Positions 34,969 to 36,361 of a stretch of 64,000 nt of DNA are shown here, in pieces. This DNA comes from Bacillus bingmayongensis (GTDB taxonomy: Bacteria > Bacillota > Bacilli > Bacillales > Bacillaceae_G). The notes under the pieces are model-generated. The model was not told the origin of the DNA. It worked only from the letters and a program-made list of their open reading frames with translations, and did not search any database. The stretch is from contig NZ_JH921517.1 in NCBI RefSeq assembly GCF_000299035.1, forward strand, positions 547,317 to 611,316, written 5' to 3'. A program made the translations under genes and the position numbers. Every line of letters begins with the position of its first letter. The stretch's first letter is position 1.

Positions 34969-36208
34969 ACAAAAAGTTATTCGTTGTTTCATCATACCGA
35001 ATAGGATGTTGCGTTATATCCTTCTGTATACATTTTGTACGTAAAGGTTCTTGTAGCACTGAAAAATAAATAGCGTTTGCTTTTCGCTCTATATCTAAAA
35101 CAGGATGCCTGAATGTCTTCGTATGAGTGAGAAGTGGGAGTCCGAGATTTTTTTTATGTTTTGAAATATAAGTTTGTCCTTTTTGTGACATACCAAGTAA
35201 ACGTATATATGGTGAATGTTGCTCTATATGTGCTTTTTCCATTTCTTCTTTTGTTGTATTCGTTAAAATATGTGTACATGCTCGTTGTAATCTAGTCCAT
35301 GTATAACGTTTTGTTTTTAATGCTTCCATGAAAGTAAGAAATGAAGAGGCATTATGTATTTTTGATAAAATACGATGCTCCAATCCTTCCTCTATCTCAT
35401 ATATATGTTGTAACTCCTGGGAAGACATTGTCAGAAGTTTATATTTGAAAAATGGGAAATACTCCTCCCAACAATGCAAGGTATGATACGTTTGTTTATA
35501 GCTTTCTAAAAAGGATGCGGTACAATTTGGTACAAATGGATATATGTTTGAGAATGAATCATTTTCACTAAATAATTGTTTGCGAATGCTGGTCGCACTT
35601 GCGATATGGCTATCTTGAAAAGTTTCATCATGATAATGAGATGCGAACCTTTCAATGGTATGTGCATGAATTGAACTTTTCTGGGAAAGAATCGCCTCAA
35701 TGTAATGTAAGCCTAATATATTATTTGGCTGGGACATATCAACAATATTGACGTCCGAAAAAATATGTGAGAAGGCTTGAGAAGTTGCTTTGGCATAGCT
35801 GTTTCCAGTATTCATAAATTGCTGCACAAGTTGATTGAAAGTATCTTTTTCTTTTTGGCGTAAAGAAATGGTGTTATAGAAATTTTGAACTTCTCCATCC
35901 TCACTACCAAAGCAAATTTCAGAAACGCCAAGGGCATCTAAAATAGAAATGGCTCCACTAGCAAATGTTTCGGCTTTTTGTGTTGCGAATGCATAAGGGA
36001 GTTCAACAACAAGATCTATGCCACCAGCTAGAGCCATCTTGGTTCGATACCACTTTGATACGAGAGCTGGTTCACCGCGTTGTAAAAACGGTCCGCTCAT
36101 AACAGCGATTGTAATGTCAGACTGTGTTAACTTTTCTGTTTGTTGCACATGATAAGCATGACCGTTATGAAAGGGGTTATATTCAACAATAATACCGCTT
36201 GCCTTTAT
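34967..36208 (-). CDS. tmcAL: tRNA(Met) cytidine acetate ligase TmcAL (YlbM), probable AUA start
   Basis: A 413-residue enzyme that uses acetate and ATP to form N4-acetylcytidine at position 34 of elongator tRNA-Met. With a start at 36208 the protein begins (M)KASGIIVEYNPFHNGH, which aligns residue for residue with B. subtilis MKAVGLVVEYNPFHNGH, including the ATP-binding HNGH. That codon is ATA; ATC and ATT precede it. AAAGGAG (36223-36217) is 8 nt upstream. The only standard in-frame start is a GTG at 36148, which has no good ribosome-binding site and would delete HNGH. The frame closes at TAA (36265) with no ATG, GTG or TTG between. Confidence 0.88.
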   Translation of the reverse strand: MKASGIIVEYNPFHNGHAYHVQQTEKLTQSDITIAVMSGPFLQRGEPALVSKWYRTKMALAGGIDLVVELPYAFATQKAETFASGAISILDALGVSEICFGSEDGEVQNFYNTISLRQKEKDTFNQLVQQFMNTGNSYAKATSQAFSHIFSDVNIVDMSQPNNILGLHYIEAILSQKSSIHAHTIERFASHYHDETFQDSHIASATSIRKQLFSENDSFSNIYPFVPNCTASFLESYKQTYHTLHCWEEYFPFFKYKLLTMSSQELQHIYEIEEGLEHRILSKIHNASSFLTFMEALKTKRYTWTRLQRACTHILTNTTKEEMEKAHIEQHSPYIRLLGMSQKGQTYISKHKKNLGLPLLTHTKTFRHPVLDIERKANAIYFSVLQEPLRTKCIQKDITQHPIRYDETTNNFL

Positions 36209-36361
36209 GATAATCTCTCCTTTCGATGTAGCATCTTTTCTAAAAACATGATAATCTATATATTATTTCCTATAATGACTTCATTATAGTGTAAAGAAAA
36301 AACATTGACAAATATAAAATGGCTAGCTATAATTTTGTTTGTTGCCTTGAGGTGATATGAT

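What the first reader, a model, noticed from the sequence alone, without database searches (positions are those of the whole stretch)
36146..36265. tmcAL appears to start at AUA (or AUC/AUU), a non-standard start codon
On the minus strand the frame before the GTG at 36148 encodes KASGIIVEYNPFHNGHAYH, which aligns without gaps to the start of B. subtilis TmcAL including the ATP-binding HxGH motif. Between the upstream stop (TAA at 36265) and that motif there is no ATG, GTG or TTG. The codon aligned to Met1 is ATA (36208-36206), 8 nt after AAAGGAG; ATC and ATT precede it. Starting at the GTG would remove the catalytic motif. IF3 discriminates against such codons, as known for infC (AUU). TmcAL makes ac4C34 in elongator tRNA-Met, the modification that guards against AUA misreading, so an AUA start could be part of a feedback loop; that is inference. 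I recall cereus-group database entries for this protein also being about 20 residues short, suggesting the oddity is conserved.
Basis: partly seen in the sequence, partly recalled or inferred. Interest (0 to 1): 0.78.

Follow-up and report, generated by a model that had tools for sequence, protein, structure and literature searches.

The report
tRNA-modifying enzyme gene with AUA start
The gene for a tRNA-modifying enzyme (TmcAL) in this Bacillus-like genome very probably begins at AUA instead of a normal start codon, an uncommon but known device that usually makes little protein, and a gene-finder that accepts only normal start codons would cut off the enzyme's active site.

Summary
On the minus strand the tmcAL frame has no ATG, GTG or TTG between its upstream stop (TAA, 36265-36263) and the GTG at 36148. 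Starting at that GTG would remove 20 residues, including the HxGH motif. Homology to TmcAL begins one codon after ATA 36208-36206, 8 nt behind a strong Shine-Dalgarno (GAAAGGAG); the GTG has none. The decisive new evidence is one diverged relative (L056, 78% protein identity). It keeps the ATA, the Shine-Dalgarno and the spacing, while its ATC codon is ACC. That excludes sequencing error and a shared AUC start. Of 152 other distinct TmcAL start regions, 151 have ATG, TTG or GTG at this place and one has an ATG one codon upstream. AUA starts are already mapped in S. aureus (infC, ccpN, citZ); reporters of ccpN and citZ gave about 10% of AUG in poor medium. So this is a new member of a known kind. 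The proposed ac4C feedback lacks a route: in E. coli the initiator tRNA has unmodified C34. Most likely the AUA plus strong Shine-Dalgarno keeps TmcAL synthesis low and dependent on initiation stringency (inferred). No protein-level evidence was found, and no genome labelled as cereus group was reached.

The parts
34967..36208 (-). tmcAL (ylbM) coding sequence read from AUA, 413 aa; tRNA(Met) cytidine acetate ligase
   Evidence: translation; PF05636 462.7 bits, residues 2-387; NF010191 510.4 bits over its cut-off 360; PDB 5y0p/5y0n/5y0o E about 1e-125, residues 2-413
36206..36208 (-). AUA initiation codon (proposed)
   Evidence: Column of Met1 in 151 of 152 other distinct TmcAL start regions; ATA kept in L056
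36217..36224 (-). extended Shine-Dalgarno GAAAGGAG, 8 nt before the AUA
   Evidence: Duplex -14.1 kcal/mol with the recalled Bacillus anti-SD; equalled or beaten by 8 of 152 other TmcAL sites
36283..36311 (-). promoter-like site TTGTCA-17-TATAAT of tmcAL
   Evidence: 11 of 12 consensus positions; the part from TTTTTTCTTTACACTATAAT on is kept in L056
36209..36300 (-). conserved promoter-leader stretch
   Evidence: 7 of 92 positions differ from L056, against 65 of 124 fourfold-degenerate sites in the CDS (Fisher p 5e-13) and 281 of 1236 CDS positions (p 3e-4)
36146..36148 (-). GTG that would be the first canonical start (393 aa)
   Evidence: No SD to speak of (-4.4 kcal/mol); loses residues 1-20 with the HxGH motif
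36205..36234 (-). 9-codon ORF ATG...TAA in another frame, its TAA overlapping the AUA (AUAA)
   Evidence: Present in L056 too, but its ATG has no SD (-2.4 kcal/mol), and 31 of 140 other start regions with an overlapping stop have an ATG ORF of this kind

Best explanation
tmcAL is an intact gene translated from AUA 36208-36206 with fMet, aided by an extended Shine-Dalgarno at normal distance. The AUA is a retained property of this lineage, not an error. The weak codon paired with a strong ribosome-binding site keeps synthesis of this housekeeping enzyme low and makes it depend on how strictly the ribosome (IF3) rejects AUA, as for infC and ccpN. Shown here: the frame, the homology boundary, the SD, the same ATA in a diverged relative, and a pattern of purifying selection on codons 2-20. 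Inferred: actual initiation at AUA, low output, IF3 dependence.
For: No canonical start in frame. Family homology starts at the codon after ATA. Met1 is ATG/TTG/GTG at that column in 151 of 152 other distinct TmcAL start regions; the remaining one, L166, has an ATG one codon upstream. L056 has 322 of 414 identical positions (stop included) and 65 of 124 fourfold sites changed; it keeps ATA, SD and spacing while ATC is ACC. Changes in codons 2-20: 4 synonymous, 1 Ile/Val; in the 18 upstream codons: 1 synonymous, 3 nonsynonymous. SD -14.1 kcal/mol at AUA against -4.4 at GTG. Precedent in PMC13009471 (section 10 read; passages): AUA starts of S. aureus infC, ccpN and citZ, AUU of cvfC1. An extended SD is reported for infC, cvfC1 and ccpN. 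Reporters of cvfC1, ccpN and citZ gave about 10% of AUG in poor medium, ccpN up to 30% in rich medium. Control of the method: infC reads ATT at the start position in 30 of 30 genomes (that this ATT is the infC start is recalled).
Against: No peptide, ribosome-profiling or reporter data for this gene. Conservation rests on two sequences. The leader and the first 60 codons of L056 are more similar to the window than the rest of the gene (codons 2-60: 20 of 177 nucleotides differ; whole CDS: 281 of 1236), so a recent exchange of this stretch between lineages is not excluded. 0 of 397 genomes of the order drawn around G205 held the leader with up to 3 mismatches, so no third case was found. SD energy alone does not single out the AUA: the same SD gives -13.4 for ATC and -12.9 for ATT. 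IF3 dependence is analogy only.
Confidence: 0.87

Rival explanations
1. The AUA start is real but has no regulatory role: a mildly weakening change became fixed in the ancestor and was tolerated because little TmcAL is needed, with the strong SD making up for it.
For: TmcAL often uses weak starts anyway: 47 of 152 other start regions have TTG or GTG. No Rfam family and no common RNA fold in the leader.
Against: The weak codon stayed while 65 of 124 fourfold sites changed; the leader is unusually conserved.
Confidence: 0.3
2. Translation starts at ATT (36214-36212) or ATC (36211-36209), adding one or two residues.
For: Both are near-cognate and in frame; ATT is kept in L056; SD energies are similar for all three codons.
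Against: ATC is ACC in L056; ATT lies 2 nt after the SD; neither aligns with Met1 of the relatives.
Confidence: 0.05
3. Reinitiation: ribosomes translate the 9-codon ORF 36234-36205 and restart at the AUA overlapped by its UAA.
For: The ORF and the AUAA overlap are kept in L056, with 8 of 9 sense codons unchanged.
Against: Its ATG has no SD (-2.4 kcal/mol). The overlap comes free with a Lys codon at position 2, and 31 of 140 other start regions with an overlapping stop have an ATG ORF of this kind. The longer 14-codon version (ATG 36249) is not kept in L056 (ACG).
Confidence: 0.06
4. The start is the GTG at 36148 and the protein is truncated or inactive.
For: It is the first canonical start and gives 393 aa in both sequences.
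Against: No SD; removes the HxGH motif; residues 2-20 are far better conserved than the rest in 63 of 63 relatives; the frame is open for 413 codons in both lineages.
Confidence: 0.03

Closest known systems
infC (IF3) of bacteria, AUU or AUA start
   Same: Near-cognate AUN start behind an SD; ATT at that position in 30 of 30 genomes of one Bacillaceae family here, AUA in S. aureus (PMC13009471)
   Different: infC is autoregulated by its own product IF3 in E. coli; TmcAL is not an initiation factor
ccpN, citZ (AUA) and cvfC1 (AUU) of S. aureus, mapped by Ribo-Ret (PMC13009471)
   Same: AUA start; for ccpN an extended SD with appropriate spacer, conserved between S. aureus and B. subtilis according to the paper
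   Different: Initiation was mapped and measured there, not here; tmcAL is not mentioned in that paper's main text (0 occurrences)
TmcAL of Bacillus subtilis (COG1323; PDB 5y0n-5y0q as recalled)
   Same: Full-length homology, HxGH motif; TmcAL makes ac4C34 from acetate and ATP (PMC7408541, passages)
   Different: The TmcAL start regions examined outside this lineage use ATG, TTG or GTG

Membership tests
TmcAL (PF05636 / NF010191) | Score over the curated cut-offs | tested here: met
   462.7 against 27 bits; 510.4 against 360 bits
TmcAL (PF05636 / NF010191) | N-terminal nucleotide-binding segment with HxGH | tested here: met
   EYNPFHNGH present only if translation starts upstream of the GTG
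TmcAL (PF05636 / NF010191) | Makes ac4C34 in elongator tRNA-Met | not testable with these tools
   Inferred from homology to the B. subtilis enzyme
Genes with a natural AUA/AUU start | No canonical start that would give the conserved N-terminus | tested here: met
Genes with a natural AUA/AUU start | Near-cognate codon conserved among relatives | tested here: met
   In one relative only (L056, 78% identity); no third case found
Genes with a natural AUA/AUU start | Strong or extended SD at normal distance | tested here: met
   8 contiguous pairs with the recalled anti-SD, -14.1 kcal/mol, 8 nt
Genes with a natural AUA/AUU start | Initiation at the codon shown by ribosome profiling, peptides or reporters | not testable with these tools
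   No such data for this gene in the listings
Genes with a natural AUA/AUU start | Output limited by IF3 discrimination | not testable with these tools
   By analogy with infC only

The most novel reading that the evidence does not exclude
The AUA start makes TmcAL a sensor of decoding stringency at the very codon whose misreading its product prevents. When initiation fidelity drops (low IF3, or an initiator tRNA whose C34 this lineage's TmcAL can also acetylate), TmcAL synthesis changes and corrects AUA/AUG discrimination. This would be a feedback loop of translation fidelity.
Probability: 0.06. Interest if true: 0.85.

Novelty: new member of a known kind. Interest (0 to 1): 0.5.

Why it matters
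Few natural AUA starts are established in bacteria, and gene-finders limited to ATG, GTG and TTG cannot call them (both recalled); here such a call would give an enzyme without its catalytic motif. A conserved AUA start on a tRNA-modification gene would add a housekeeping case to the short list of genes with near-cognate starts (infC, ccpN). It also gives a ready test of whether IF3-type discrimination tunes tRNA modification in Firmicutes.

Tried and rejected
Tried without result: whole genome of the window (none held). Plasmid and phage collections for tmcAL with its upstream region (no match). Leader pattern in 397 genomes of one order (0 of 397). Leader pattern in viral contigs (only the contig of L056). 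Rfam around the start (none). RNA folding of the leader: z +1.2 in the window, -1.1 in L056, different folds. A second copy of the GATGCTACATCGAAAGG element in the window (only itself). Other window genes with long start-less frames: 8 of 68 ORFs looked at by eye, two of them by Pfam; no second credible case. The prophage of L056 against phages (two tiny matches only). Paper searches: seen as listings. None of the listed titles and abstract beginnings reports an AUA start for tmcAL; full texts of most were not opened. Passages only were seen of PMC4363619, PMC8779196 and PMC11301382; these passages bring nothing on the start of this gene.

Rejected: sequencing error (same ATA in L056); AUC as shared start (ACC in L056); GTG start (no SD, loses the conserved N-terminus); -1 frameshift from the small ORF (considered by eye only; no slippery heptamer seen); ac4C feedback at initiation (initiator C34 unmodified in E. 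coli).

Full report
What is there. The minus strand carries an uninterrupted frame from a TAA at 36265-36263 to the stop ending at 34967. Between that TAA and the GTG at 36148 lie 38 codons, none of them ATG, GTG or TTG. The 19 codons just before the GTG encode KASGIIVEYNPFHNGHAYH. The codon before them is ATA (36208-36206), preceded by ATC and ATT. GAAAGGAG ends 8 nt upstream of the ATA. A promoter-like site, TTGTCA-17-TATAAT, lies at 36311-36283.

Identity. Read from ATA the protein has 413 residues. It scores 462.7 bits with PF05636 (cut-off 27) and 510.4 bits with NF010191 (cut-off 360). It matches PDB chains 5y0p, 5y0n and 5y0o from residue 2 to 413 with E about 1e-125, and the Thermotoga maritima TmcAL chain 5y0r with 4.9e-61 (that the first three are B. 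subtilis TmcAL is recalled). When the whole open frame is scanned, the Pfam match begins at the residue right after the ATA. When only the GTG reading is scanned, the match starts at profile position 21 and scores 52 bits less. The lost part holds the HxGH motif.

Relatives outside the lineage. One search scanned 171 records (170 loci and the window); two (L070, L126) gave no motif. Of 169 motif hits, 161 had ATG, TTG or GTG at the Met1 column. Four had ATA: the window, plus L056, L065 and L066, which are one contig. Three (L067-L069) were viral-contig proteins with GRFNPFHNGH, which I take not to be TmcAL (not tested). One (L166) had an ATG one codon further upstream. Counting distinct start contexts, one search gives 152 besides the window and L056: 104 ATG, 36 TTG, 11 GTG and that one. 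These are a part of what was found: 25 of 25 loci, 90 of 286 matching genomes, and 48 of 80. Among those examined, none outside the lineage has a near-cognate start, while the weaker TTG/GTG starts are frequent (47 of 152).

The decisive relative. A scan of viral contigs returned one contig (L056; IMGVR_UViG_2547132164_000004) in which a prophage end is followed by a tmcAL 78% identical to the window's. It has the same GAAAGGAG, the same spacing and the same ATA, but ATC is ACC. Its first canonical ORF is again 393 aa. The two genes are well separated: 65 of 124 fourfold sites differ. Within codons 2-20 there are four synonymous changes and one Ile/Val change. In the 18 codons before ATA there are one synonymous and three nonsynonymous changes. 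The numbers are small, but they fit coding constraint that begins at the ATA. Over 63 relatives (L001-L064 without L056; L033 is the same genome as L002), residues 2-20 are on average 79.3% identical to the window, against 47.5% for residues 21-413, and higher in 63 of 63. The 92 nt before the ATA differ at 7 positions only (Fisher p 5e-13 against fourfold sites, 3e-4 against all CDS positions). So either the leader is constrained too, or this end of the gene was exchanged more recently: codons 2-60 differ at 20 of 177 nucleotides, the whole CDS at 281 of 1236. I cannot separate these with two sequences.

Ribosome-binding site. With the Bacillus anti-SD (recalled sequence), the site before the ATA has -14.1 kcal/mol. 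This is equalled or beaten by 8 of 152 other TmcAL sites and by 5 of 55 window ORFs of at least 150 aa (shadow ORFs not removed). The GTG at 36148 has -4.4. The same SD gives -13.4 for the ATC and -12.9 for the ATT, so spacing, alignment and conservation, not energy, single out the ATA. Strong, extended SDs are what Nat Commun 2026 (PMC13009471; passages, section 10 read) reports for S. aureus infC (AUA), ccpN (AUA) and cvfC1 (AUU). Its reporters of cvfC1, ccpN and citZ gave about 10% of AUG in poor medium, rising to 30% for ccpN in rich medium. As a control on my method, infC in 30 of 30 genomes of one Bacillaceae family shows ATT at its start position; that this ATT is the infC start is recalled.

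Mechanism. The most likely reading is direct initiation with fMet at AUA, rescued by the SD and limited by IF3-type discrimination, giving low and possibly condition-dependent TmcAL. That the weak codon persisted through this much divergence speaks for at least tolerance, probably for a benefit of low synthesis; drift remains a serious rival (0.3). A nine-codon ORF ends in UAA overlapping the AUA and is kept in L056. But its ATG has no SD, and such ORFs occur in 31 of 140 other start regions with an overlapping stop, so I give reinitiation 0.06.

The feedback idea. [quoted passage not shown] for E. coli TmcA on elongator tRNA-Met also PMC10192219, passages). TmcAL is the B. subtilis enzyme (PMC7408541, passages). 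In E. coli the initiator tRNA-Met has unmodified C34 (PMC11199890, passage). So the AUA of the start codon should not feel ac4C. The link between an AUA start and an AUA-guarding enzyme is then a coincidence, unless this lineage differs. I keep it as the novel case at 0.06.

Limits. No call names the organism of the window or of L056. Apart from L056, the best identity listed was 55%, and 0 of 397 genomes held the leader, so closer relatives were not reached. Nine paper searches (seen as listings) show no report of an AUA start for tmcAL; the library holds open-licence papers only.

Noticed in passing
L056:179-1282 and 1820-1925: In the relative, a prophage (integrase-like and HNH-like ORFs, named by eye) ends right at the tmcAL promoter. 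The window-like sequence begins at TTTTTTCTTTACACTATAAT, and the -35 region differs from the window's TTGTCA. Integration at this promoter may change tmcAL transcription.
   Followed up: partly
window 36283-36333: Divergent promoter-like sites for tmcAL (minus) and the ylbN-like gene (plus, TTGACA-17-TATAAT; gene name recalled) overlap at their -35 hexamers.
   Followed up: no
window 34940-34963: A terminator-like hairpin with T-runs on both strands sits between the convergent ends of tmcAL and the ylbL-like gene (gene name recalled).
   Followed up: no
window 36225-36235: GATGCTACATC, a small inverted repeat inside the conserved leader just upstream of the SD, is unchanged in L056; function unknown, no second copy of the longer element in the window.
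   Followed up: partly
window 34967-36205: The tmcAL reading frame uses AUA for 11 of 32 Ile codons, against 224 of 1214 in 37 window ORFs of 250 aa or more; nearly a two-fold excess in a small sample.
   Followed up: no
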